This document shows positions 532-12,186 of a stretch of DNA of 12,186 bases, piece after piece (position 1 is the first letter of the stretch; each line of letters opens with the position of its first letter). Made by a program: the position numbers and the translations under genes. The DNA comes from an uncultured Bacteroidales bacterium (lineage in GTDB: Bacteria; Bacteroidota; Bacteroidia; Bacteroidales; Bacteroidaceae), in NCBI GenBank assembly GCA_902768605.1, contig CACXLY010000071.1, forward strand, positions 1 to 12,186, written 5' to 3'. A model generated the notes under the pieces. The model did not search any database, had not been told where the DNA came from, and worked only from the letters and a program-made list of their open reading frames with translations.

Positions 532-1569
532 TCACTTCACTAAAATCTTCCAGGTCGAGCCTTGCTGGGCGCCTGTGGCAGTGAGGATGTAGATGCCTGC
601 GGCGGGTGCCGTCAGGGTGAGGCTGGTGCCGGATGCGGCGGCGCATTGTGTGCCGTCGATGGAGAAGAGCCGCACGGTCATCGGCTTCTCTGCCTGGAAG
701 GCTATCTCGCGACCGCTGACGCTGATGTCCGCCTCTGCTTCCTGCATCGTGCTGATGCCGTCGGGCTTTTCCGCGCCAAGATATTCGCCCTCGATGGTTT
801 CCTCGAAGACGTTGATGCGGATGCGGTAGTAGCCGTCCTTGCTGATAGCCCACTTATAGTCCTCCGAGCCGTTGTACCAGAGCTGCTTGGCTGTCAGGAT
901 GGAGGCGTCCTGCCCAAACGGGTGCAGCACCTTCGGGCTCCATCCGTACTGCCCGTTTATCTTGAAGCGCTTTGGCTCCTGATTGTATGTGTAGTTTTTC
1001 AGCAAGCCAATCCACTCGAACACGTTGGGGTCGTCTCTGTCCTGCACCATCTGCTTGCCGGCCGACAGCTGCCAATGCCCTTCCTGACCTGATGTGCCCT
1101 TGCCCTGCTCGTCCTCGACGCAGCCGCCGCATATCCAGGCCTCGTACCATCGGGTGAATAGCTCGCCCGTCAGCTGCTTGTGGTAGGTGTCGACGGTAAA
1201 GCGATAGTTGTCCGCCTCGAAGAGAACCGCCCACTCAGCCCCCACGCTGTCGCGCCTTTGGACATAGTCGGCCTTATTGGTCACGATGTTTGTGTCCACG
1301 AGTTTCGGCGCGTAGTAGGTCGAGGGTGTTGCCGAGCCGGTGGTGGTGATGTAGAGATTGCCGGGGAGCAGCTTGCCGTGGTACTTGAAGGTGTAGCGGC
1401 CGCTGACGTTCGTCGGAAACTTTGTGAGCTGCTGTATGCCGCCAGGCACCGCCGAACCCCTGATGTAGAGGCGAGACTGAGCAAGAGCCATAGAACATTG
1501 CACATTGAACAATGAACAATGAACAAGGAGGAAGAATATGAGGAAGGAAAGAATGCGATGAATCATCAT
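532..1569 (-). CDS. secreted SusE/SusF-like carbohydrate-binding protein with T9SS-type C-terminal signal
   Basis: A 345-residue protein, probably a cell-surface or released glycan-binding partner of the GH31 enzyme encoded just upstream. Residues 1-30 form a signal peptide (hydrophobic ILSFLIFFLL, cut probably near ALA-QS). Two beta-rich, Trp/Tyr-rich modules follow, about 33-135 (starting LYIRGSAVPGG, as in SusE/SusF-type modules) and about 143-264 (ending in a YRIRINV strand). Residues 283-345 look like a type IX secretion sorting domain: a short Ig-like fold, AAGIYILTATG, and a terminal KILVK. Classical SusE and SusF are lipoproteins, but I see no lipobox Cys here, so export by T9SS is the better fit (inference). 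It starts 40 bp after the GH31 stop on the same strand and is probably co-transcribed. The codons for residues about 14-25 are made of a 7-bp repeat. Ligand unknown; an alpha-glucan is a guess from context. Confidence 0.75.
   Translation of the reverse strand: MMIHRILSFLIFFLLVHCSLFNVQCSMALAQSRLYIRGSAVPGGIQQLTKFPTNVSGRYTFKYHGKLLPGNLYITTTGSATPSTYYAPKLVDTNIVTNKADYVQRRDSVGAEWAVLFEADNYRFTVDTYHKQLTGELFTRWYEAWICGGCVEDEQGKGTSGQEGHWQLSAGKQMVQDRDDPNVFEWIGLLKNYTYNQEPKRFKINGQYGWSPKVLHPFGQDASILTAKQLWYNGSEDYKWAISKDGYYRIRINVFEETIEGEYLGAEKPDGISTMQEAEADISVSGREIAFQAEKPMTVRLFSIDGTQCAAASGTSLTLTAPAAGIYILTATGAQQGSTWKILVK
1494..1528. repeat. five in-phase 7-bp repeats inside the signal-peptide codons
   Basis: On the plus strand five heptamers run without a break, consensus AACAATG (variants AACATTG, CACATTG, AACAAGG). 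They lie within the SusE/F-like gene, encoding the segment around LVHCSLFNVQCS of its signal peptide. Seven is not a multiple of three, so gain or loss of one unit would shift the frame. Confidence 0.85.
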
Positions 1570-1571
1570 AT

Positions 1572-1614
1572 AACTATGAATTATTAACTATGAACTATGA
1601 ACTGATAAACTATG
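1572..1614. repeat. degenerate AACTATG heptamer repeats between the GH31 and SusE/F-like genes
   Basis: AACTATG-like units begin at 1572, 1586, 1593, 1600 (partial) and 1608, several in 7-bp register. They fill the 40-bp gap between the two genes and run into the GH31 stop codon (1610-1612). They resemble the heptamers at 1494-1528 and 6940-6960. Confidence 0.75.
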
Positions 1615-3946
1615 CTATCTCGCTAAGCGGGACGTTAATGGTGATGGGGGCAGAGAGGTCGCTTGTGCTGACGGTGACCGTGAGCGTCTTGGTGGCCTCG
1701 TCGTAGGTGATGTCGGCATCTTCTACAGGATTGCCGTTGACGGTGATGCCTTCGCGGACGAAGGTGGCAGGTGTCCCGAGGAACTCCACTTTCCATTGGC
1801 GCTCGGTCGGCATGCCTTCGAAGCTGCCTTCGCGTCCGCCGATGGTCAGCTCGACATTGCGCTTGCTGCGGTTCTGCACAAAGGTCGTCATGGTCCAGGC
1901 ATCGCCCTTGTAGTCCTGATTGTCGCCGCTGTCCTCGTAGAGTTTACCTGTGCCGCTTGCTCCGGGCGCCACTTTGAGGATGATTTCGCCCGGGTCGCCC
2001 ACGACGGTGCGTCGCACGGGATAGAAGGGTATGACGCTTCCCGCGCGGTAGAACACGGGGAACTCGTCGAGCGTGAATGTGCTGTAGAAAGCGCGGCCGC
2101 CACTGAGCAGGCGCGACTTCGTCACGTCCCACCACTGCCCCTCGGGGTACCAGATCATGCGTCCGCTGAGTCCGTCGCGGCTCGGCGTGTAGATGGGAGC
2201 GACGAGCATATCGTTTCCGAACATATATTCATCCTCATAGATATAGGAATTCTGCTCTTCGGGATAGTCGTAGTAGAGCGGGCGGTTCATGCCGACACCT
2301 GTGTCGTAGGTTTCGCGAGCAGCCGTATAGAGATACGGAAAGAGTTTGTAGCGCAGACGCACCGCCTCGCGAAGCTGTTCGAAGTTGCTGTATTTCCAGA
2401 TGCGACGTTCCAGGCGGCTGTCGTTCGTGGCATGGGTGCGGAAGATTGGCGTGAAGGCGCCGAACTGCAGCCAGCGGAGGAGGAGCTCCGGATCGTTGTT
2501 GCCGCCCTGATGCCCGCCGAGGTCGTGTCCCCAATAAGCATAGAGGACGTTGCTGGCATTGCTTGTGAAGAAGATTTCGTAGCCGAGCATCGACCAAGCG
2601 GCCCACGTGTCGCCGGAGAAGCAGATGGGATAGCGGTGCGAGCCCAAGCCGCCCCAGCGGTGATAGATGACGGGGCGAAGGTCGGGCCTGTTCTTTTGCA
2701 TGTCCTCGAAGAACGTGTGGTTGCACCAGAAGGTTTCGCCCAGGCGGCCCGACCCATCGGCAGGCGTGTAGCTTTTCTCCTGCCCGTGCTTGCCGACGGT
2801 AAGCGCTTGCTGCCAGTCGAGCCACCAGAAGTCGACGCCTTCGCGCTCGTGGGGTCGGATGACGTGATTGAAGAGGGCCTGCATGTAGTCGTAATCCTCG
2901 ACCTTCCACTTCAGGGTCTGTCCGGAGTTGTCGCCCAGGGCATTTGCCATCGCCCTGTAGGAGTCCTCGCTTTTCGACACGCCGTCGGAGGGGTGCAGAT
3001 TGAGGGCAGTCTTCAGTCCGTGCTGATGGAAGTAGCTGATGAGCGAGCGGGGCTGTGGGATGCGATTCGTGTTCCAGCTCCATCCCGTCCATCCGCTCTT
3101 GTGCCAGTCCATGTCCATAATGATGACGTCCATCGGGATGTCGTTGCTTTCGACGTCACGGACGATCTGCTTGAACTGGTCGGCCGTATAGGCCATATAG
3201 CGGCTGTACCAGTATCCCAGTATGTACTTCGGGGGCATGGGTACGCGTCCGCCGACCTTCGTGTAGTCCTGCAGGCACTTCTTGTACTCGTGGCCGTAGC
3301 CGAGGAAATACCAGTCGATGGCCATCGTATCGACGGGGATGGCCCACCAGGTGATGCCGTCGTCCTTTGGCTCAAGTGCATAGGAGGCACTTCCGTCGCC
3401 CCGGAGCGTCATGGGGCTTTCGTCGATGATGCTCCATCCAGCGCGTGAGAGGAGTCCCTTCTCGAGGTTGCCGCGCTTGTTGTCGCCCCAGGCCTGGTCG
3501 AGGGTGCGGCATGTGCCGAGCAGGTTCATCGAGTCGTCCTTGCCCGGGTACCACGTGATGTTGCGTCCGTTCATCTGAAACGTGACCATCAGGTTGTCGG
3601 GGGTCTTGTCGGTCGGTTTGAAGACGCTGCCCTCTTTATAGCGTAGGGTGAGGTCCTGCGTGCGGATGTAGAGGTAGCCGTCGCTCGTCTCGGTGGAGAA
3701 CTCGGGCACGGGGAGGCGCCGGTTGACGATGCCGAAGGTGGCTCTGTCCTCAAACAGGGGGTACGAGCTGTACTGGATGCGGATCATCTGGCTCGTGAGG
3801 ACCGTGAAGCGGGCATTGCCCGAAGTGACCACTGCCGCCGGATCGGCCACGGGATTCAACTCGTCTTCTGCACGCATGGGCAGTGAAGACAGGATGAATG
3901 AAAGAACGAGAAAATGAATGAATGAAAGGTGAAATTTGGAAATCAT
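1610..3946 (-). CDS. GH31 family glycosidase (alpha-glucosidase-like), secreted
   Basis: A 778-residue enzyme expected to remove alpha-linked sugars from glycan ends by a retaining mechanism. Residues 1-26 are a signal peptide (SFIHFLVLSFILSS, cut near MRA). An N-terminal beta-sandwich covers about 30-230. The GH31 barrel starts near KYILGYWYSRY (240) and includes DVIIMDMDWH (273-282), the predicted nucleophile Asp377 in FWWLDWQ, the predicted acid/base Asp446 in FSGDTW, and the RTH substrate-site motif at 503-505. C-terminal beta domains follow (ML VAPIY from about 580, then a DUF5110-like part). A longer frame opens with TTG at 3979, but that start overlaps the -7 promoter box at 3977-3984, so I chose the ATG at 3946. 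It shares its operon with the SusE/F-like gene and is divergent from the GH43 gene. Family assignment is firm. Substrate (alpha-glucan, or alpha-xyloside or galactoside) is not settled by the sequence. Confidence 0.92.
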   Translation of the reverse strand: MISKFHLSFIHFLVLSFILSSLPMRAEDELNPVADPAAVVTSGNARFTVLTSQMIRIQYSSYPLFEDRATFGIVNRRLPVPEFSTETSDGYLYIRTQDLTLRYKEGSVFKPTDKTPDNLMVTFQMNGRNITWYPGKDDSMNLLGTCRTLDQAWGDNKRGNLEKGLLSRAGWSIIDESPMTLRGDGSASYALEPKDDGITWWAIPVDTMAIDWYFLGYGHEYKKCLQDYTKVGGRVPMPPKYILGYWYSRYMAYTADQFKQIVRDVESNDIPMDVIIMDMDWHKSGWTGWSWNTNRIPQPRSLISYFHQHGLKTALNLHPSDGVSKSEDSYRAMANALGDNSGQTLKWKVEDYDYMQALFNHVIRPHEREGVDFWWLDWQQALTVGKHGQEKSYTPADGSGRLGETFWCNHTFFEDMQKNRPDLRPVIYHRWGGLGSHRYPICFSGDTWAAWSMLGYEIFFTSNASNVLYAYWGHDLGGHQGGNNDPELLLRWLQFGAFTPIFRTHATNDSRLERRIWKYSNFEQLREAVRLRYKLFPYLYTAARETYDTGVGMNRPLYYDYPEEQNSYIYEDEYMFGNDMLVAPIYTPSRDGLSGRMIWYPEGQWWDVTKSRLLSGGRAFYSTFTLDEFPVFYRAGSVIPFYPVRRTVVGDPGEIILKVAPGASGTGKLYEDSGDNQDYKGDAWTMTTFVQNRSKRNVELTIGGREGSFEGMPTERQWKVEFLGTPATFVREGITVNGNPVEDADITYDEATKTLTVTVSTSDLSAPITINVPLSEIA

Positions 3947-3976
3947 ACAGTAGGATGTCTTTGCTTTATTTGCTTG

Positions 3977-4009
3977 CAAAGTTACACTTTTCTTGCCAAA
4001 CTGGCAAAA
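3977..4009 (-). promoter_or_regulatory. Bacteroidetes-type promoter for the GH31 operon
   Basis: On the minus strand TTTTG (4009-4005) is followed after 20 bp by TAACTTTG (3984-3977), a full match to the Bacteroidetes consensus TTTG-N19-21-TAnnTTTG. The predicted start point is roughly 3970-3973, giving a leader of about 25 nt before the ATG at 3946. This position is why the upstream TTG start is rejected. Confidence 0.85.
3993..4007. promoter_or_regulatory. inverted repeat, candidate operator on the GH31 promoter
   Basis: TTGCCAAACTGGCAA is a perfect 6-bp inverted repeat with a 3-bp centre, extendable outward with one mismatch. It overlaps the -33 element of the GH31 promoter and fills much of its spacer, so a bound protein would likely block or alter RNA polymerase. 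No regulator gene lies in the window, so its ligand and binder are unknown. Confidence 0.5.
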
Positions 4010-4138: not shown

Positions 4139-5161
4139 ATGACTCTGTTTCGCACACTCTCACTTTTGCTGACGATGCTGATCCCTCTTCTCGTTTTCGG
4201 CGGAGGAGGAACGGGCAGCGAAGCGCTTCCCCTGGAGGGGGAGCCGACGCCCATTGTCAATCCCGTATGGAAGGGCAACTGGCCCGACCCGACCGTCTGG
4301 CGGGGCGACGACGGCCGCTATCACTGTCTGGCCACCAATCCCATGCGTTCGCTCGTGAGCGACGACCTGTTCCACTGGGAAATGAGCGAGGTGCCGCCCA
4401 TCGACCTCGAGTCGTGGAACACGATGCACGCCATCAGCCGCAACTACTGGGCCCCCGATGTAGCCACCGTGGCAGGCAAACGCAATCTCTACATCTCGCT
4501 CTACAACAGCGCGGAGGACAGCAACATAGGCGTCCTGCAGGAGTATGCGCCCGGGCAGTTCCGCTTTGTCGGCATCATCACGAGCGGCAAGGAGACGGGC
4601 ATCCACGACACCATCGACCCGGAGGTCATTACTGACCCCAAGACGAAGAAAGTGTGGCTCTTCTTCGGCTCTGTGGGCGGCATACATCGCATCGAGCTCA
4701 ACAAGGACGGCCTCTCGCTGAAGGAGGGCGCGACGTACGAGCATGTGGCCGGCCTCAAGGTGGAAGAGAACCCCAACCGCTCCAAGGTGTTCGAGGGCTC
4801 CTATCTGCACCGCCACGGCAAGTACTGGTATCTCTTCGTCAGCTCCGGCTTCTTCGGCGACCACTCCTATCAGCTGAAAGTGGGCAGGGCGAAGAAACTG
4901 ACCGACGACTTCCTCGACCGCGACGGACGCCCCATGAAGGACGGGTACGCCACCATGGTGCTTCACAGCGACGAGGGCGACCGCTTCTACGGCCCCGGGC
5001 ATTGCGGCGAGATATTCCAGGCAAAGGATGGGAACGAATACATCTTCTACCACTGCCACGTGGCGGGAAGCAGGAGACCGGGCAGCCGTCCGCTATTCCT
5101 CTCCCCCATCAAGTGGGACAAGGAGGGCTGGCCATACGTCGAAGGAGGCAAGCCCCAATGA
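4139..5161 (+). CDS. GH43 family glycosidase (arabinosidase/xylosidase-type), secreted
   Basis: A 340-residue single-domain inverting glycosidase with a five-bladed beta-propeller fold. Residues 1-20 are a hydrophobic signal segment (LSLLLTMLIPLLVF) followed by a Gly-rich stretch, with no lipobox Cys. Family 43 signatures are all present: predicted base Asp50 in NWPDPTVW, the YWAPDV motif (103-108), predicted pKa-modulating Asp160 in TIDPEV, predicted acid Glu219 in FEGSY, and the metal-associated GPGH (285-288). Length is usual for a catalytic domain with no binding module attached. It has its own promoter, divergent from the GH31 pair, so the three probably act on the same or mixed plant glycans in the periplasm or outside the cell. 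GH43 enzymes vary in substrate (arabinan, arabinoxylan, galactan), and I cannot choose among these. Confidence 0.9.
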   Translation: MTLFRTLSLLLTMLIPLLVFGGGGTGSEALPLEGEPTPIVNPVWKGNWPDPTVWRGDDGRYHCLATNPMRSLVSDDLFHWEMSEVPPIDLESWNTMHAISRNYWAPDVATVAGKRNLYISLYNSAEDSNIGVLQEYAPGQFRFVGIITSGKETGIHDTIDPEVITDPKTKKVWLFFGSVGGIHRIELNKDGLSLKEGATYEHVAGLKVEENPNRSKVFEGSYLHRHGKYWYLFVSSGFFGDHSYQLKVGRAKKLTDDFLDRDGRPMKDGYATMVLHSDEGDRFYGPGHCGEIFQAKDGNEYIFYHCHVAGSRRPGSRPLFLSPIKWDKEGWPYVEGGKPQ

Positions 5162-5176
5162 GGCCCTGAAAAACCC

Positions 5177-5264
5177 CACAGCAAGGAACGCCGCTTCCCA
5201 CAGCAAGGAACGGCCAACGCTACAGCAAGGAACAGCCAACGCCACAGCAAGGAGTTTCCGGCGC
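5177..5264. repeat. four tandem copies of a 22-bp repeat
   Basis: A core CACAGCAAGG (TACAGCAAGG in copy 3) recurs at 5177, 5199, 5221 and 5243, exactly 22 bp apart. Copies 2 and 3 also share the following part (GCCAACGC), while copies 1 and 4 diverge at their 3' halves. The array begins 16 bp after the GH43 stop codon and is GC rich, unlike the other intergenic repeats in the window. Confidence 0.9.
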
Positions 5265-5331: not shown

Positions 5332-5485
5332 GGAAGTTAAAGAAGTTAATGAAGTTAAAGAAGTTAAAGGACGATACCTATGGATGCTGTGTGCATTCAG
5401 TGCCGGATTGGGCTGCAAAAGCTATTGTCCTTTAACTTCCCCAAGCGAGCAAAGCGAGCTAACTTCTTTAACTTCTTTAACTTCC
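5332..5485. repeat. 154-bp imperfect inverted repeat built from 9-bp units
   Basis: The left arm (5332-5372) has four GAAGTTAAA-type nonamers and ends in GGAC. The right arm carries the reverse complement: GTCCTTTAACTTC (5427-5439), then after 20 extra bases a run of TTTAACTTC-type units to 5485. Outer arms 5332-5357 and 5460-5485 pair over 26 bp with one mismatch; inner arms 5360-5372 and 5427-5439 pair over 13 bp exactly. The 20 inserted bases include AAGCGAGCA and AAGCGAGCT, also 9-bp units in phase with what follows. The loop is 54 bp. It may end GH43 transcription, be a small non-autonomous element, or form a structured RNA; no clear target-site duplication was seen. Confidence 0.85.
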
Positions 5486-5546: not shown

Positions 5547-6932
5547 ATGACATTAATCAAATCAATCTCTGGTATCAGAGGCACCATCGGAGGCAGGGCA
5601 GGAGATACGCTCAACCCCCTCGACATCGTGAAATTCACATCAGCCTACGCAACCCTCATCCGCCGCACAACGACGGTCGGGAGTAACAAGATAGTGGTCG
5701 GCCGGGACGCCCGCATCTCCGGACCCATGGTGAAGAACGTGGTCTGCGGTACGCTCATGGGCATGGGCTTCGACGTAGTCAATATCGGCCTCGCCACGAC
5801 GCCCACCACGGAGGTGGCTGTCACCATGGAAGGCGCTTGCGGCGGCATCATCATCACCGCCAGCCATAACCCACGCATGTGGAACGCACTGAAACTGCTC
5901 AATTCCCAGGGCGAGTTCCTCAACAAAGAGGAAGGAAACGAGGTGCTCCGCATAGCCGAAGCCGAAGACTTCGAGTATGCCGACGTCGACCATCTGGGCA
6001 CGTATCGCGAGGACAACACTTACGACCAGAAGCACATCGACATGGTGCTCGGCCTCGACCTCGTGGATGTGGACGCCATACGGGGGGCAAACTTCCGCGT
6101 CGCCTTCGACAGCGTCAACAGCGTCGGCGGCATCATCCTGCCCAAACTGCTCGAACAGCTCGGCGTGAAGACCGTCACGGGCCTCTTCACCGAGCCGACC
6201 GGCGACTTCCAGCACAACCCGGAGCCGCTCGAGAAGAATCTGGCCGACATCAAAGCCCTCATGCAAAAGGGCGGGCACGACATCGCATTCGTCGTCGACC
6301 CCGATGTGGACCGCCTCGCCCTCTTCTGCGAAGACGGCACGATGTACGGCGAAGAGTACACCCTCGTCACGGTGGCCGACTACATCCTGCAGCACACGCC
6401 GGGCAATACCGTCAGCAACCTCAGCTCGACCCGCGCCCTGCGCGACGTGACGCGTAAGTATGGCTGCGAGTACAACGCCGCTGCCGTGGGCGAAGTGAAT
6501 GTGGTGACGAAGATGAAGGAGACGGGTGCCGTCATCGGCGGCGAAGGCAACGGCGGCGTCATCTATCCCGCCGCACACTACGGCCGCGACGCTCTCGTAG
6601 GCATCGCTCTCATCCTGACCTACCTCGCCAAAAAGGGAATGACGGCAAGCCAGTTGCGTGCCACCTATCCCCCCTACTTCATCGCGAAGAACCGCATCGA
6701 CCTCAAGCCCGAGACCGACGTTGATGCCATCCTGCAAGAGGTCAAGAAGATGTATGCCAGCGAAGAGGTAAACGACATCGATGGCGTCAAGATAGACTTC
6801 CCCGACAAATGGGTTCACCTGCGCAAGTCCAACACCGAGCCCATCATCCGCGTCTACAGCGAAGCCAGCACGATGGAGGAAGCCGACGCCATCGGCAAGA
6901 AAATCATGGACGTCGTCTATAGCATGGCATGA
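5547..6932 (+). CDS. glmM: phosphoglucosamine mutase (phosphohexomutase family)
   Basis: A 461-residue cytoplasmic alpha-D-phosphohexomutase. GlmM interconverts GlcN-6-P and GlcN-1-P on the way to UDP-GlcNAc for peptidoglycan and surface glycans. The start SISGIRGTIGG is the usual N-terminal substrate loop. The phospho-serine loop is ITASHNP with Ser106; the metal loop is DPDVDRLA (Asp251, 253, 255), with Pro and Val where many homologues have Gly; the sugar-binding loop is GGEGNGG (331-337, Glu333); and the phosphate-binding loop is RKSNTEPIIRVYSE (426-439). Full length and uninterrupted. nagA follows 37 bp downstream on the same strand, and its product GlcN-6-P is the GlmM substrate, which supports GlmM over a general phosphomannomutase or phosphoglucomutase. 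A looser specificity cannot be excluded. Confidence 0.87.
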   Translation: MTLIKSISGIRGTIGGRAGDTLNPLDIVKFTSAYATLIRRTTTVGSNKIVVGRDARISGPMVKNVVCGTLMGMGFDVVNIGLATTPTTEVAVTMEGACGGIIITASHNPRMWNALKLLNSQGEFLNKEEGNEVLRIAEAEDFEYADVDHLGTYREDNTYDQKHIDMVLGLDLVDVDAIRGANFRVAFDSVNSVGGIILPKLLEQLGVKTVTGLFTEPTGDFQHNPEPLEKNLADIKALMQKGGHDIAFVVDPDVDRLALFCEDGTMYGEEYTLVTVADYILQHTPGNTVSNLSSTRALRDVTRKYGCEYNAAAVGEVNVVTKMKETGAVIGGEGNGGVIYPAAHYGRDALVGIALILTYLAKKGMTASQLRATYPPYFIAKNRIDLKPETDVDAILQEVKKMYASEEVNDIDGVKIDFPDKWVHLRKSNTEPIIRVYSEASTMEEADAIGKKIMDVVYSMA

Positions 6933-6939
6933 AAACTTT

Positions 6940-6960
6940 AAACTATAAACTATCAACTAT
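6940..6960. repeat. three 7-bp repeats between glmM and nagA
   Basis: AAACTAT, AAACTAT and CAACTAT follow one another without gaps in the 37-bp glmM-nagA spacer. The unit is close to the AACTATG heptamers at 1572-1614. No promoter or terminator is visible in this spacer, so the pair is probably one transcript. Confidence 0.75.
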
Positions 6961-6969
6961 TTACGCCCT

Positions 6970-8136
6970 ATGTTAACACAGATCATCAATGGTAAAATCC
7001 TGACTCCGCAGGGGTGGCTCAAGAACGGTAGCGTCATCCTGAGAGACAACAAGATACTGGAGGTCACGAACTGCGACTTGGCAGTCATCGGAGCTGACCT
7101 CATCGATGCGAAAGGCATGTATGTGGTGCCCGGATTCATCGACATGCACGTCCACGGCGGTGGCGGAAGAGACTTCCAGGAAGGCACACCCGAAGCCTTC
7201 CGCGCCGCAGTGGAAGCGCACGCCAAACACGGCACGACCTCCATCTTCCCCACTCTCTCCAGCAGCACCGTGCCGATGATAGAGAAGGCCGTACAGACGT
7301 GCTCCAAGCTCATGCAGGAAAAGGATTCGCCCATCCTCGGCTTGCATCTCGAGGGGCATTACCTCAGCCCGAGCAAGGCCGGCGCACAGCAGCCCGAATG
7401 GATCAAGAACCCCGACCCGAACGAATACATCCCCATCGTGGAGCACTCGGATTGCCTGACACGCTGGGACGCAGCGCCTGAGCTGCCGGGGGCATTGCAG
7501 TTCGGAAAATACTGCGCAGAGAAAGGCATCCTGCCCAGCATCGCACACACCAATGCAGAGTACGACGACGTGAAGGCCGCCTTTGAAGCCGGTTTCACCC
7601 ACGTCACACACTTCTACAACGCTATGCCTGGCTTCCACAACAAGATGGGTTATAAGTACGAAGGCACTGTGGAAAGCGTGTACCTCATCGACGACATGAC
7701 TATAGAATGCATCGCCGATGGCATCCACGTTCCTCCCACTATCCTCCGCATGGCCTACAAGATTAAGGGCGTGGAGCGTATGGCAGTCATCACCGACGCC
7801 TTGGCAGTTGCAGCCGCAGGTCCCGATGCGAAAGCCTTCGACGACCGCGTCATCATCGAGGACGGCGTCTGCAAGCTCGCCGACCGCAGTGCGCTGGCAG
7901 GCTCCATCGCCACGACCGACCGCCTGGTACGCACCCTCGTGCAGCAGGCAGAGGTGCCGCTCGAGGATGCCGTCCGCATGGCAAGCGAGACGCCGGCTCA
8001 CATCATGGGCGTCTTCGGACGTAAGGGCGCGCTGGCCCGCGGCAAGGATGCCGACGTGCTTGTCCTCGACGACAAGCTCAAGGTGCGCTGTGTATGGCAA
8101 ATGGGCAGAATCATTGAGAACACGCTCTTCAAATAA
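6970..8136 (+). CDS. nagA: N-acetylglucosamine-6-phosphate deacetylase
   Basis: A 388-residue cytoplasmic amidohydrolase that converts GlcNAc-6-P to GlcN-6-P and acetate, the entry step for GlcNAc from chitin, host glycans or recycled peptidoglycan. The family layout is complete: an N-terminal beta-sandwich strand (LTQIINGKILTP), the HxH motif in GFIDMHVHGGGG (His60, His62), the metal ligand Glu128 in LHLEGHYLSP, His193 (AHTNAE), His214 in THFYNAMPG, His253 in ADGIHVPP, and the predicted catalytic Asp276 in ITDALA. The LEGHY form replaces the LEGPF common in enterobacterial NagA. The final RGKDADVLVLD closes the sandwich. The ATG at 6970 gives the expected N-terminus. The gene follows glmM by 37 bp, and together they can feed salvaged GlcNAc into UDP-GlcNAc synthesis without GlmS. 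Confidence 0.92.
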   Translation: MLTQIINGKILTPQGWLKNGSVILRDNKILEVTNCDLAVIGADLIDAKGMYVVPGFIDMHVHGGGGRDFQEGTPEAFRAAVEAHAKHGTTSIFPTLSSSTVPMIEKAVQTCSKLMQEKDSPILGLHLEGHYLSPSKAGAQQPEWIKNPDPNEYIPIVEHSDCLTRWDAAPELPGALQFGKYCAEKGILPSIAHTNAEYDDVKAAFEAGFTHVTHFYNAMPGFHNKMGYKYEGTVESVYLIDDMTIECIADGIHVPPTILRMAYKIKGVERMAVITDALAVAAAGPDAKAFDDRVIIEDGVCKLADRSALAGSIATTDRLVRTLVQQAEVPLEDAVRMASETPAHIMGVFGRKGALARGKDADVLVLDDKLKVRCVWQMGRIIENTLFK

Positions 8137-8152
8137 ACGAAAAGTAAGGCCG

Positions 8153-8267
8153 AACACTCTGAATGCTCTGATTGTTCTGAATACTCTGAGTGCTCCGATT
8201 ATTCAGAATACTCTGAGTAATCCCAACTCAGAATACTCAGAACACTTCGAACACTCCGAACCATCCG
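8153..8267. repeat. array of about 13 degenerate 9-bp repeats upstream of the channel-CotH gene
   Basis: From 8153, nonamers of consensus AAYACTCYG (for example AACACTCTG, AATACTCTG, AACACTCCG) run in 9-bp register to 8224. One shortened 7-bp unit (8225-8231) follows, then four more nonamers to 8267. The array fills nearly the whole 135-bp gap between nagA and the next start codon, ending 4 bp before the ATG at 8272. On paper one frame reads a three-residue repeat, but no start or family supports a protein. Confidence 0.88.
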
Positions 8268-8271
8268 ATAA

Positions 8272-11200
8272 ATGAACATCATCCGACGTCTGTGGCAGAA
8301 AGCCATGAGGAATAAGGCACTCCGAGAGAAGCTGCGAGTCATCATCTTCCAAAGCGACACGCCCCTCGGAAAGGCCTTCGACATCACCTTGCTCTGGTGC
8401 ATCGTGGCGAGCATCCTGCTTGTCGTGGTCGAGAGCATGAGAGGTCTCCCGCCGATGGCCAAGCAGATATTCACCATCCTGGAATACGTCTTCACGTTCT
8501 TCTTCACGCTCGAATACCTGTGCCGCCTCTACTGCTCGGACAAGCCCAAAGAGTATGCCCTCAGCTTCTTCGGCATCGTGGACCTGCTGAGCACACTGCC
8601 GCTCTACATCGGCTGGTTGTTTGGGCCGGTGCGCTACCTCATGGTGGTGCGTACGTTCCGACTCATACGCGTCTTCCGCGTCTTCAAACTCTTCAGCTTC
8701 CTCCAGGAGGGCGACCTCCTGATGCGTTCCATCATCATCAGTGCCCCGAAGATTGGCGTCTTCTTCCTCTTCATGGTCATCCTGGTCATCAGTATGGGGA
8801 CGCTGATGTTCATGGTGGAAGGCAACCTCCCGGGCTCGCCGTTCAAAGACATCCCGACAAGCATCTACTGGGCTGTCGTGACAATGACGACCGTCGGCTA
8901 CGGCGACATCGCTCCGGCAACGTTTTTCGGACGCGTGCTTTCCGCAATAGTCATGCTCATGGGCTACACCATCATGGCTGTGCCGACGGGTATCGTCAGC
9001 GCACAGATGGTGCACGATCACAAGACACGACGCAAAGACAAGTTCTGCCCGGAGTGCGGTTCGCCCCTACCCTTCGATGCGCATTACTGTCCGTTCTGCG
9101 GCTTGAAGCAAGACGCCATCAAGAACCTGAAGAGCGTCAAGACGCCGCTTGTCCTGATACTATGCCTGTTGATGCCGAGTGTCCCGCTTTTTGCAGAGGG
9201 GCAAAGGCTGACAGGCACAATCATTGGCACTGCCGAGAGCGTGGATTACGCTACAGGACAGGCAAGCACCACCATCAACACTGCGGCCAATGCCTTCGAC
9301 GGGAACCTCTCCACATTCTTTGCCTCCTACGAGCGCAGCAAGACGTGGGTGGGACTTGACCTCGGAGCGAAGCATGTCATCACCCGTGTCGGATGGGCAC
9401 CTCGCGAGGGCAGTTATGGCCCGAAACGCGTCGTCCTGGGGCTCTTCGAGGGTGCCAACGACCCGAACTTCATGGATGGTGTCCCTCTTTATATTATAGA
9501 TGAGGAAGGCACGGCCGGCACGATGAGCTATGCCGACGTCGATGTCTCGCGAGGCTTCCGCTATGTACGATACATCGGGCCTAACGACGCGAGGTGCAAC
9601 ATAGCGGAAGTCGCATTCTATGGCCAAGCCAGCGAAGGCGACGACTCGCACTTCTACCAGCTCACCAACCTGCCTACGCTCTCCTTCCATACTGTCGACA
9701 ACGTTGACCCATACGACAAAGTGCATGAAATCGTCTCGTCCATCACCATCATTTATGACAACGAAACGAAGATTCAGGAAGAGACAGGCACGACCCGATA
9801 CCGCGGCAACGGTTCGCTCACGAACGAAAAAAAGCCCTATCGCATCAAGCTCGACGAATCGCATCGCATGTTCAAGAACTCCGAGATGCGTTCTCCGGCG
9901 AAAGCCAGGAAGTGGACACTCATCAACAATCACGACGACAAGACCCTGATGCGCAACCTCGTGGCCTTCGAGATAGCACGCCGAATGGGCTACGACTACG
10001 TGCCCTGGAGCAAGCCGGTTGATGTCATCGTCAACGGTGAGTACAAGGGTTGCTACCAACTGAGCGACCAGATAACGGTCGACAGGAACCGCGTCAACAT
10101 CACCGAGATGCTTCCAACCGACATCGAAGGCGACCTCATCACGGGCGGCTATCTGCTGGAGCTCGACGGATATGCCAATCAAGAAGTCTCCTGGTTCACC
10201 AGTGCCGCAGGCAATCCGGTTACCATCAAGAGTCCCGACGACAATGATATCGTGCCCGAACAGGCTGCCTACATTCGCCGCGAGTTCAATCTGATGGAGG
10301 CAAAGATACTGGCTTCCAACTTCGACGACCCTGATTTGGGATTCCGTTCGAAGCTCGACGAGAAGACTCTCCTGCAGTATTTCCTGACCGAAGAACTGGC
10401 CGGCAATCCCGATGCCTTCTGGAGCTGCTACCTGACAAAAGACCGCGAAGAGGACGTCTTCCGCATCGGACCGGTCTGGGACTTTGATAATGCCTTCGAC
10501 AACGACTACCGCAACTACCCGACGAACGGCCTTGGAGATTTCCTCTCGCTTGCCCGAGGTGGTGCCGGCAACTCGCGTGCCTTGCTCAAGCGAATGTTCT
10601 CCGACCAGGTCCTACGCGACTCGATGGCGGTGATGTGGAACAACGCGAGAGCCGAAAGAGGCATTAACGCTGAGAGCCTCGACGCCTATATCGACTCGAC
10701 GGCCAACGAGCTGATGCAGTCGCAAAGGCTTAATTTCATACGATGGCCCATTTTGGACAAGCTCATACAAATCAATCACAGGGCCGGCGGTTCGTATGAA
10801 GTCGAGGTCGGATGGCTGAAGGAATACATCGACGAACGTATCCCGTGGCTCGACAACGCCATCAATACAGAATCCGACGACCAAGAGCCGGAGCTCGTGG
10901 AGATTGCATCTGCTGCAGCTTTGGCCAGATTTGCCAATCGCGTCAACAACGGGGAGACCAAGCTCAATGCTGTGCTGAAGGCCGACATCAACTTTGCTCC
11001 ATATCCTTCCATAATGATTGGCGTCAACACCCACTACCAGGGAGAGTTCGACGGAGCCGGTCACAGCATCAAACTTGCCTTGAAACGCACCTCGGACGAT
11101 GCCGGCCTGTTCGGTTGGCTCTCCGGCTATGTCCACGACCTCACCACGACTGGCACCATCACGACATCTGCCAAGTTTGCCGGAGGCATAGCGGCAAGGA

Positions 11201-12186
11201 CAGAAGATGCCACGATAGAACGATGCCAAAGCCGCGTCAACATCGTCAGCACGGTTAATGGCGACGGCACGCACGGCGGCATTATGGGCATCGCCTATAA
11301 GGGCACGATTGTACGCGACTGCCTTGTCAGCGGCAACATGGAAGGCAATCAGACGAACTGCTGCGGCGGTGTCGCCGGCTGGACAGACGGCTCGACTCAC
11401 ATCTCGAACTGCCTCATCACAAGCCAGTTCACAGTAGGCACATCGGGCAGCGACCTCTTGGCTCGAAACGTCAGCAACGTCACTTCCACGAACAACTACT
11501 TTGCCAGCGACTGGGGCGCCTCGAATGGTTGCGGCGGCATTACGTTCCTGACTGAAAACCAAGTGGCTTACGGCGAGGCTTGCTTCATGCTTGATGGCAA
11601 ACAGCCAGGCTCCACTGCCTGGCGGCAGACACTTGGCTCGGACGTCACCCCCGTGCCCGACACTTCGCACGGCACCGTCTATTGCTTCTCGCATCTGCAT
11701 TGCGACGGCACACCCTACACCACCATTAACGGCTACACCAACGACGCTTCGCGCAACGGACAGGACGAACATTCCTTCCAGTACGGCATCTGTCAGTACT
11801 GCGGATACGTCGATATGGACAGTATGCCGAAGGACGAACGCGGCTACTTCCAGATTGCTTCGGCTGAGGCGCTCGAATGGTTTGCCCAGATGATAGAACA
11901 AGGTCATACCGATATCTGCGGCGTGCTGACCGAAGATATTGACTTCACCGGCTATCCCACCACGATGATTGGCGACAGCAAGACCTACGAAGGCACCTTC
12001 GACGGAGCCGGTCACACCATCACCATCGCACTTGTCCGCACAGCCGACTACGCCGGACTCTTCAACAGACTGTCAGGCACGGTGCAGGACCTCATCGTTC
12101 GTGGCACGATTACTACAAACCGCAAGTTCGCAGGCCTTGCAGCCAACGTATTGGGCGGCACATTGCTCCGCTGCCAAAGCTACATC
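8272..12186 (+). CDS. fused voltage-gated ion channel / zinc ribbon / discoidin / CotH-kinase / GLUG protein, 3' end beyond window
   Basis: One frame stays open for 1305 codons to the window edge. The ATG at 8272 has TAA directly before it in frame. Residues 1-250 are a six-helix voltage-gated channel: S2 with Glu71 and Glu81, S3 Asp104, an S4 with basic residues every third position (Arg127, 130, 133, 136, Lys139), and a K+ filter TVGYGD (207-212). A zinc ribbon follows (Cys259, 262, 273, 276), as at the end of normal-length relatives. Residues 291-308 are hydrophobic with Lys before and AEG after, a typical signal peptide. Then come a discoidin/F5-8C domain (about 315-451, AFDGNLSTFF), a CotH-kinase-like domain (about 475-860: YRGNGS 510-515, KKPYRIK 520-526, GGYLLELD 625-632, WDFDNAFD 736-743), and GLUG-like beta repeats from 878. 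Each half is a standard protein alone; their union is the oddity. The role of the whole is unknown. Confidence 0.85.
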   Translation, partial: MNIIRRLWQKAMRNKALREKLRVIIFQSDTPLGKAFDITLLWCIVASILLVVVESMRGLPPMAKQIFTILEYVFTFFFTLEYLCRLYCSDKPKEYALSFFGIVDLLSTLPLYIGWLFGPVRYLMVVRTFRLIRVFRVFKLFSFLQEGDLLMRSIIISAPKIGVFFLFMVILVISMGTLMFMVEGNLPGSPFKDIPTSIYWAVVTMTTVGYGDIAPATFFGRVLSAIVMLMGYTIMAVPTGIVSAQMVHDHKTRRKDKFCPECGSPLPFDAHYCPFCGLKQDAIKNLKSVKTPLVLILCLLMPSVPLFAEGQRLTGTIIGTAESVDYATGQASTTINTAANAFDGNLSTFFASYERSKTWVGLDLGAKHVITRVGWAPREGSYGPKRVVLGLFEGANDPNFMDGVPLYIIDEEGTAGTMSYADVDVSRGFRYVRYIGPNDARCNIAEVAFYGQASEGDDSHFYQLTNLPTLSFHTVDNVDPYDKVHEIVSSITIIYDNETKIQEETGTTRYRGNGSLTNEKKPYRIKLDESHRMFKNSEMRSPAKARKWTLINNHDDKTLMRNLVAFEIARRMGYDYVPWSKPVDVIVNGEYKGCYQLSDQITVDRNRVNITEMLPTDIEGDLITGGYLLELDGYANQEVSWFTSAAGNPVTIKSPDDNDIVPEQAAYIRREFNLMEAKILASNFDDPDLGFRSKLDEKTLLQYFLTEELAGNPDAFWSCYLTKDREEDVFRIGPVWDFDNAFDNDYRNYPTNGLGDFLSLARGGAGNSRALLKRMFSDQVLRDSMAVMWNNARAERGINAESLDAYIDSTANELMQSQRLNFIRWPILDKLIQINHRAGGSYEVEVGWLKEYIDERIPWLDNAINTESDDQEPELVEIASAAALARFANRVNNGETKLNAVLKADINFAPYPSIMIGVNTHYQGEFDGAGHSIKLALKRTSDDAGLFGWLSGYVHDLTTTGTITTSAKFAGGIAARTEDATIERCQSRVNIVSTVNGDGTHGGIMGIAYKGTIVRDCLVSGNMEGNQTNCCGGVAGWTDGSTHISNCLITSQFTVGTSGSDLLARNVSNVTSTNNYFASDWGASNGCGGITFLTENQVAYGEACFMLDGKQPGSTAWRQTLGSDVTPVPDTSHGTVYCFSHLHCDGTPYTTINGYTNDASRNGQDEHSFQYGICQYCGYVDMDSMPKDERGYFQIASAEALEWFAQMIEQGHTDICGVLTEDIDFTGYPTTMIGDSKTYEGTFDGAGHTITIALVRTADYAGLFNRLSGTVQDLIVRGTITTNRKFAGLAANVLGGTLLRCQSYI
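9103..9195 (+). other. fusion junction and internal signal-peptide-like segment
   Basis: The zinc ribbon ends at Cys276-Gly277, then LKQDA, then IKNLKSVK (283-290) and the helix TPLVLILCLLMPSVPLFA (291-308). Changing CAA (9109-9111) to TAA and ATC (9118-9120) to ATG would give two ordinary neighbouring genes 6 bp apart, the second starting MKNLKSVK plus signal peptide. A TTG at 9103 could in principle start the second half separately. The segment has lysines on the cytoplasmic side, so the second half would face the periplasm. Cleavage after Ala308 is plausible. Confidence 0.7.
10903..11238 (+). repeat. GLUG-type repeat unit 1 within the fused protein
   Basis: Residues 878-989 start IASAAALARFANRVNNG and include GEFDGAGHSI and GLFGWLSG, then FAGGIAA. 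They align along their whole length with unit 2, starting 317 residues later. Between the units are further GGI/GGV-type strands and a CxxC segment (YGICQYCGY). Confidence 0.85.
11854..12186 (+). repeat. GLUG-type repeat unit 2, cut by window edge
   Basis: Residues 1195-1305 start IASAEALEWFAQMIEQG and include GTFDGAGHTI and GLFNRLSG, matching unit 1 with conserved order. An 18-bp stretch, TTCGACGGAGCCGGTCAC, is identical at DNA level in both. The unit probably continues past the window. Confidence 0.85.

What the first reader, a model, noticed from the sequence alone, without database searches (positions are those of the whole stretch)
8272..12186. Voltage-gated ion channel fused in frame to an exported discoidin-CotH-GLUG protein
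A full six-helix channel with S4 arginines and a TVGYGD filter runs without a stop into a zinc ribbon, a signal-peptide-like helix and a large extracytoplasmic CotH-kinase-type protein. Both halves are complete and separately recognisable, and all 1305 codons are open. I know of no described protein with this order of domains. It could link membrane voltage or K+ flow to a periplasmic kinase-like domain, or simply be a recent gene joining.
Basis: partly seen in the sequence, partly recalled or inferred. Interest (0 to 1): 0.85.

Follow-up and report, generated by a model that had tools for sequence, protein, structure and literature searches.

The report
Potassium channel fused to exported kinase
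In a group of gut bacteria one gene encodes both a complete voltage-gated potassium channel and a large exported kinase-like protein joined by a built-in signal peptide, so the two halves are probably made as one chain and then cut apart at the cell membrane.

The parts
8272..12186 (+). Fused reading frame (1305 codons in the window, open at its end; about 1,521 aa in full)
8371..9021 (+). Six-helix voltage-gated K+ channel domain (Ion_trans, residues 34-250)
   Evidence: nearest solved chains are Kv4, Kv2, Kv1 and Shaker channels
8632..8694 (+). S4 segment with arginines 121, 127, 130, 133, 136 and lysine 139
   Evidence: sequence; near-invariant
8890..8907 (+). K+ selectivity filter TVGYGD (residues 207-212)
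   Evidence: sequence; conserved
9040..9111 (+). Zinc ribbon with four cysteines (259, 262, 273, 276)
   Evidence: the four Cys are in 24 of 24 fused loci
9112..9195 (+). Linker and internal signal peptide (residues 281-308); predicted signal peptidase I cut between 9195 and 9196
   Evidence: cut inferred
9196..9636 (+). CBM62-like carbohydrate-binding domain (about residues 309-455)
9796..10848 (+). CotH kinase domain (residues 509-859); conserved Asn712, Asp714, Asp737
10909..12186 (+). GLUG-like repeat region, continues beyond the window
5547..8136 (+). Conserved upstream neighbours: phosphohexomutase (5547-6932) and NagA-type amidohydrolase (6970-8136; enzyme name recalled)

Best explanation
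The gene encodes a polyprotein. The ribosome makes one chain. Sec inserts the six channel helices with the zinc ribbon in the cytoplasm, then treats the seventh hydrophobic segment as an ordinary signal peptide, N-in/C-out. Signal peptidase I cuts after Ala308. The channel stays in the inner membrane as a normal Kv-type subunit; the CBM62-like/CotH/GLUG protein leaves as a free exported protein (in most relatives with an N-terminal Gln that can be cyclised), probably to act on or near plant cell-wall material. The fusion replaces a separate start for the exported protein and ties its output 1:1 to the channel. Shown here: the fusion, its age, frame retention, the conserved cleavage-site pattern, the CotH fold. 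Inferred: that the cut happens, the final location, the plant-wall role, any benefit of equal dosage.
For: 62 clusters with both halves; 23 of 62 loci plus the window fused in frame, joint 35-52 residues long by the script's anchors. In the 23 loci that hold the close CotH part downstream of the channel it is in frame every time. -1 is Ala in 55 of 62 (Ser 4, Gly 1), +1 is Gln 38 or Glu 18 of 62, the Bacteroidetes Q-rule (PMC5837995). In a 28-sequence alignment Ala308 is the only position of at least 90% between 280 and 313; in the 24 loci it is Ala in 23, equalled only by core leucines 297 (24) and 293 (23). Linker plus signal peptide pN/pS 0.59 against 0.11-0.30 in the flanking domains, pS not lowered (0.68). 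Free-standing relatives of the exported half carry Met-initiated signal peptides at the same place. Five clade members kept the channel without CotH.
Against: No protein-level data; cleavage is predicted, not seen. No dedicated signal-peptide predictor was run. A crude script gave an uncharged run of median 14 but under 5 in 18 of 62 (Asn, Gln or His near the site breaks the count), and a net charge before it of zero or less in 20 of 62, so the n-region is not uniformly positive. The window's own +1 residue is Glu, not Gln. Distances of the two halves correlate weakly (Mantel r 0.27, reached by 52 of 2000 permutations), so the two parts have not always travelled together. The model of residues 1-480 was too poor to show the topology.
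Confidence: 0.72

Rival explanations
1. Tethered channel-kinase: the chain is not cut, the signal-peptide-like helix serves as a seventh membrane helix, and each channel tetramer carries four extracytoplasmic CotH arms whose activity or position follows membrane voltage or K+ flow.
For: One chain in 62 clusters; both halves under purifying selection; CotH kinase fold with conserved Asp pair; kept over long divergence.
Against: Ala at -1 and Gln/Glu at +1 are kept at the joint, which an uncut tether does not need; five clade members have the channel alone and close CotH relatives exist free with their own signal peptide.
Confidence: 0.15
2. Two proteins by internal initiation: the exported protein is mainly made from a start codon near the joint, and the continuous frame is incidental.
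For: The window and 15 of the other 23 fused loci have TTG or ATG at codon 278 (14 TTG, 2 ATG); cluster P0005 has Met at the site where a signal peptide would begin.
Against: No start codon in the joint is common to the 24; L024 and L025 have none there, their nearest being ATG 246 in S6, a codon the channel keeps anyway. Frame kept in all 24 despite length changes. Synonymous change in the joint is not reduced (pS 0.68).
Confidence: 0.1
3. Assembly or sequencing artefact, or a recent accident in one strain.
For: The fused loci found are from metagenome assemblies by their record titles; no genome is held for the window.
Against: 62 protein clusters from several sources and 23 loci from public assemblies, strongly diverged at synonymous sites.
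Confidence: 0.01

Closest known systems
Cytochrome b/c1 polyprotein (fbcH) of Bradyrhizobium japonicum, cut by signal peptidase (recalled; not found)
   Same: A polytopic membrane protein followed, in one chain, by an internal signal peptide and an exported protein
   Different: Two subunits of one enzyme complex there; here a K+ channel and a CotH protein with no known joint function. Cleavage here is predicted only
Bacillus CotH spore-coat kinase
   Different: Exported, with CBM62-like and GLUG-like parts, in non-sporing Bacteroidales (recalled); kinase activity untested
Free-standing Bacteroidales CotH proteins (P0122-P0137 type)
   Same: Same mature domains, 58-67% identity to the searched 850 residues for P0122-P0137, own signal peptide
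   Different: Start with Met; six placed in genomes (L116-L121) lie beside a glutamine amidotransferase-like gene, no channel gene among the neighbours listed
Separate Bacteroidales Kv-type channels with C-terminal zinc ribbon (e.g. Phocaeicola vulgatus, L053)
   Same: Same channel and ribbon, 61% identity
   Different: End at the ribbon (285 aa)
CotH and CBM62 proteins of cellulosomes
   Same: CotH-like proteins occur in some cellulosomes with unclear role (PMC12484212, passages); CtCBM62 binds D-galactopyranose and L-arabinopyranose (PMC5063996, passages); some fused relatives end in a type I dockerin
   Different: No channel in those proteins as far as I know (recalled)

Membership tests
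Voltage-gated K+ channel (6TM) | Ion_trans domain, S4 arginines, TVGYGD filter | tested here: met
Voltage-gated K+ channel (6TM) | Voltage gating and K+ current | not testable with these tools
   needs electrophysiology
CotH kinase | Pfam CotH above cut-off | tested here: met
   137.2 bits against 23.8
CotH kinase | Fold of B. cereus CotH | tested here: met
CotH kinase | Catalytic aspartates | tested here: inconclusive
   Asp714 and Asp737 invariant in 63 rows, spacing 23 as D228/D251, but not aligned residue by residue to a CotH kinase
CotH kinase | Kinase activity | not testable with these tools
   needs an assay
Signal peptidase I substrate, Bacteroidetes Q-rule | Small residue at -1 and Gln at +1 | tested here: met
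   -1 Ala/Ser/Gly in 60 of 62, +1 Gln in 38 and Glu in 18 of 62; the window itself has Glu
Signal peptidase I substrate, Bacteroidetes Q-rule | Actual cleavage | not testable with these tools
   needs N-terminal proteomics
Signal peptidase I-cleaved polyprotein (fbcH-like) | One frame for membrane protein, internal signal peptide and exported protein, kept by descent | tested here: met
Signal peptidase I-cleaved polyprotein (fbcH-like) | Two mature proteins from the one chain | not testable with these tools
   needs blotting of fractions
Type IX secretion cargo | C-terminal sorting domain above cut-off | tested here: inconclusive
   Por_Secre_tail 8.9e-4, below cut-off, in free relative P0127; none for P0001

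The most novel reading that the evidence does not exclude
The chain stays uncut: a tetrameric voltage-gated K+ channel that carries four extracytoplasmic carbohydrate-binding CotH kinase arms, so that membrane voltage or K+ flux and an outside kinase act as one device, a signalling protein of a kind I know no description of.
Probability: 0.15. Interest if true: 0.9.

Novelty: new variant of a known kind. Interest (0 to 1): 0.6.

Why it matters
Cellular bacterial polyproteins split by the general signal peptidase are rare (from memory, the cytochrome b/c1 precursor is the textbook case). Here is one kept by a clade of gut bacteria, with an internal export signal whose evolution can be read in dozens of relatives, including lineages that have the channel alone and lineages in which the exported half is free-standing. 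It also ties a bacterial voltage-gated channel to an exported CotH protein, two things whose roles in gut bacteria are mostly unknown (recalled), and so gives a directly testable pair.

Tried and rejected
Artefact: rejected by recurrence. Recent accident: rejected by divergence. Ancestral neighbour genes that merely lost a stop: none of the 39 unfused loci has a CotH gene directly behind the channel within the stretch held (0.8-6.0 kb); the only CotH-domain match downstream is a 48% paralogue in L018, 3.6 kb away. Eight outgroup loci have a CotH paralogue (50-53% in the CotH domain) upstream of the phosphohexomutase, and close free orthologues lie at another locus. I tried to learn the direction of that move: in the 10 fused genomes searched, the bPH_2 and amidotransferase neighbours of the free gene are on different contigs, so direction stays open. 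A single clade of fused genes without the five unfused: rejected, p-AU 2.8e-5. AlphaFold model of residues 1-480 was poor (pLDDT 52.7) and not used. The CotH stretch alone found nothing among solved sequences and a profile gave 5jd9 only at E 0.5; the fold search settled it. Literature: no paper on a channel-CotH protein (CotH, Bacteroidetes, kinase, rumen) listed 15 of 839 papers, none on this by title; the fbcH precedent was not found and is recalled.

Limits: no genome is held for the window. The 62 clusters were chosen because they hold both halves; the less selected count is the 23 of 23 loci with the close CotH part, all in frame. The genomes appear to be largely those behind the loci, so the two counts are not independent. 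All are incomplete metagenome assemblies, so absence of CotH in five genomes is not certain. The CotH tree used 33 fused rows (the 23 loci, the window and 9 of the 62 clusters) and 25 of 26 chosen free proteins; P0142 lacked the anchor motif. In one search two fused rows (-1 Asp, -1 Gln) look offset by the fixed spacing, and among free proteins (39 of 40 placed) the same fixed spacing gave Ala at -1 in only 21. P0121 and P0138 have starts that may be mis-called. Fetched but not analysed: L083-L085 and most of L063-L082, L086-L115 and L122-L135.

Full report
What is there. The frame 8272-12186 is open from ATG to the window end. Pfam finds Ion_trans at residues 34-250, a zinc ribbon at 257-277, a weak F5/8 type C match at 332-438 and CotH at 509-859. 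The channel's best sequence matches among solved structures are Kv4, Kv2, Kv1 and Shaker channels, with archaeal KvAP (1orq, name recalled) further down. The F5/8-like domain is better described as CBM62-like: it matches 2yb7 and 5g56 at 8.4e-27 and 8.6e-26 (the CBM62 label is recalled and fits the domain order of CtXyl5A in PMC5063996, passages). The repeat region matches 3n6z, a putative IgA1 protease, at 3.7e-9 with a profile. A database protein, P0001, with 100% identity by rounding over the first 330 residues, is 1,521 aa and ends in a YDLSGR...GIYI tail.

It is real and shared. A search with residues 1-330 among proteins of 0.55-1.75 times the query length gave 134 hits, 120 listed; P0001-P0062 carry both Ion_trans and CotH. 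Of 62 genome loci with a channel relative, 23 have the CotH part in the same frame, 24 of 63 with the window. Of 139 genomes of one genus, 94 have a channel match; the 28 best-scoring matches (E 7e-152 or lower) are 23 in long open frames (1,077 aa or more) and 5 in short ones of about 300; these are largely the same genomes as. In a sample of 399 genomes of the family, 180 had a match and only G006, G203, G008 and G316 of those listed had an open frame above 1,000 aa. Thirteen of the 23 fused loci have titles naming a ruminant gut site; the others carry codes only.

History. A channel tree of 63 rows puts the 24 fused and 5 separate genes in one clade (100/99), needing 5 changes of state, 4 of them forced by supported branches. 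A DNA tree of 37 rows rejects the fused rows as one clade without those five (p-AU 2.8e-5; there the supported branches force only 2 changes). One gain and about four losses is the simplest reading. An M24 peptidase gene (Pfam on the L021 copy) lies behind the CotH part in 13 of 16 fused loci checked, and closely behind the channel in all 5 separate ones. The five genomes hold only CotH matches of 50% identity or less to the searched 850 residues. In the CotH tree (33 fused, 25 free rows) free genes lie inside the fused clade: 7 changes, 6 forced. Eight of these free rows form one group; relatives of it (74-85% to P0127) are in seven genomes, and in the six fetched they sit at another locus, with a glutamine amidotransferase-like gene downstream in six and a bPH_2-type gene upstream in five (Pfam on the L116 copies). 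Whether these were released from a fusion or the fused copies were exchanged by recombination is open; distances of the two halves correlate only weakly (Mantel r 0.27, reached by 52 of 2000 permutations).

The joint. From the last ribbon Gly to the conserved G-T-x-I-G-T of the mature protein there are 35-52 residues, in frame in 24 of 24. No start codon in that stretch is common to the 24. L024 and L025 have no ATG, GTG or TTG there; their nearest upstream in-frame start is ATG 246 in S6. The window and 15 others have TTG or ATG at codon 278. pN/pS is 0.113 in the channel, 0.150 in the ribbon, 0.592 in linker plus signal peptide, 0.160 in CBM62, 0.213 in CotH and 0.301 in the repeats; pS in the joint is 0.684, not lowered. 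In a 28-sequence alignment Ala308 is the only position of 90% or more between Gln280 and Leu313; in the 24 loci Ala308 is kept in 23, with leucines 297 (24) and 293 (23) of the hydrophobic core as the other fixed points. Over 62 clusters -1 is Ala 55, Ser 4, Gly 1, Asp 1, Gln 1; +1 is Gln 38, Glu 18, Lys 5, Asp 1. In Bacteroidetes signal peptidase I cleavage exposes Gln in most substrates (PMC5837995, start of abstract and passages). A crude script on run length and charge was less clean: uncharged run median 14 but under 5 in 18 of 62, net charge before it zero or less in 20 of 62. On balance the joint looks like a working signal peptide, in the orientation that a Kv channel's cytoplasmic end requires (established topology of the family; my model of this part was poor).

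How it works. Most likely a polyprotein cut by signal peptidase I (0.72): the fusion supplies the start and the 1:1 dosage, the internal signal peptide supplies export, and the cut restores two normal proteins. The tether (0.15) would leave the conserved cleavage pattern unused. Internal initiation (0.10) would need starts that are not conserved. The precedent of a cytochrome b/c1 precursor cut by signal peptidase is recalled; searches did not find it in the library.

Verdict. A real, conserved domain order that the one paper search aimed at it did not find in print. Mechanistically most likely a new variant of a known kind (membrane protein plus exported protein in one precursor), not a new kind of signalling channel, although that bolder reading is not excluded.

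Noticed in passing
window 8152-8238, also 1489-1526, 1572-1614, 5172-5253, 5333-5369, 5460-5484, 6933-6960: Short tandem repeats, mostly of 7 or 9 bases and one of 27, lie in or at the edge of intergenic gaps, one right before the channel's ATG. Some CotH proteins, free and fused, have stretches such as NSQF.IHN before their C-terminal tail, as if such repeats had entered the coding region.
   Followed up: no
P0024, P0027, P0040, P0043, P0046; L009 near 10500-10595: In some fused proteins a type I dockerin domain stands in place of the YDLSGR tail: a swap of the C-terminal sorting or docking part.
   Followed up: partly
L028, L030, L031, L033, L034, L037, L040, L042, about positions 200-1500: An outgroup clade carries another CotH gene (50-53% in the CotH domain) upstream of the same phosphohexomutase, NagA-type and channel genes, so CotH genes meet this locus more than once.
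   Followed up: partly
window 1610-3979 (-), 4139-5161 (+), 532-1569 (-): Neighbouring glycan genes: a family 31 glycoside hydrolase, a family 43 glycoside hydrolase and a weak SusE/SusF-like outer-membrane protein.
   Followed up: no
P0063, P0065-P0069, P0071-P0078: Proteins of about 770-1,310 aa that join a related channel (39-43% identity) to a PF00999 sodium/proton-exchanger domain; some are named as Flammeovirgaceae or Cyclobacteriaceae. Another channel fusion, not examined.
   Followed up: no
L083 (G330:C12), channel at G330:C12:72429-73250: A separate channel relative lies in a 644-codon open frame; the stretch was fetched but its extra frame was not examined.
   Followed up: no
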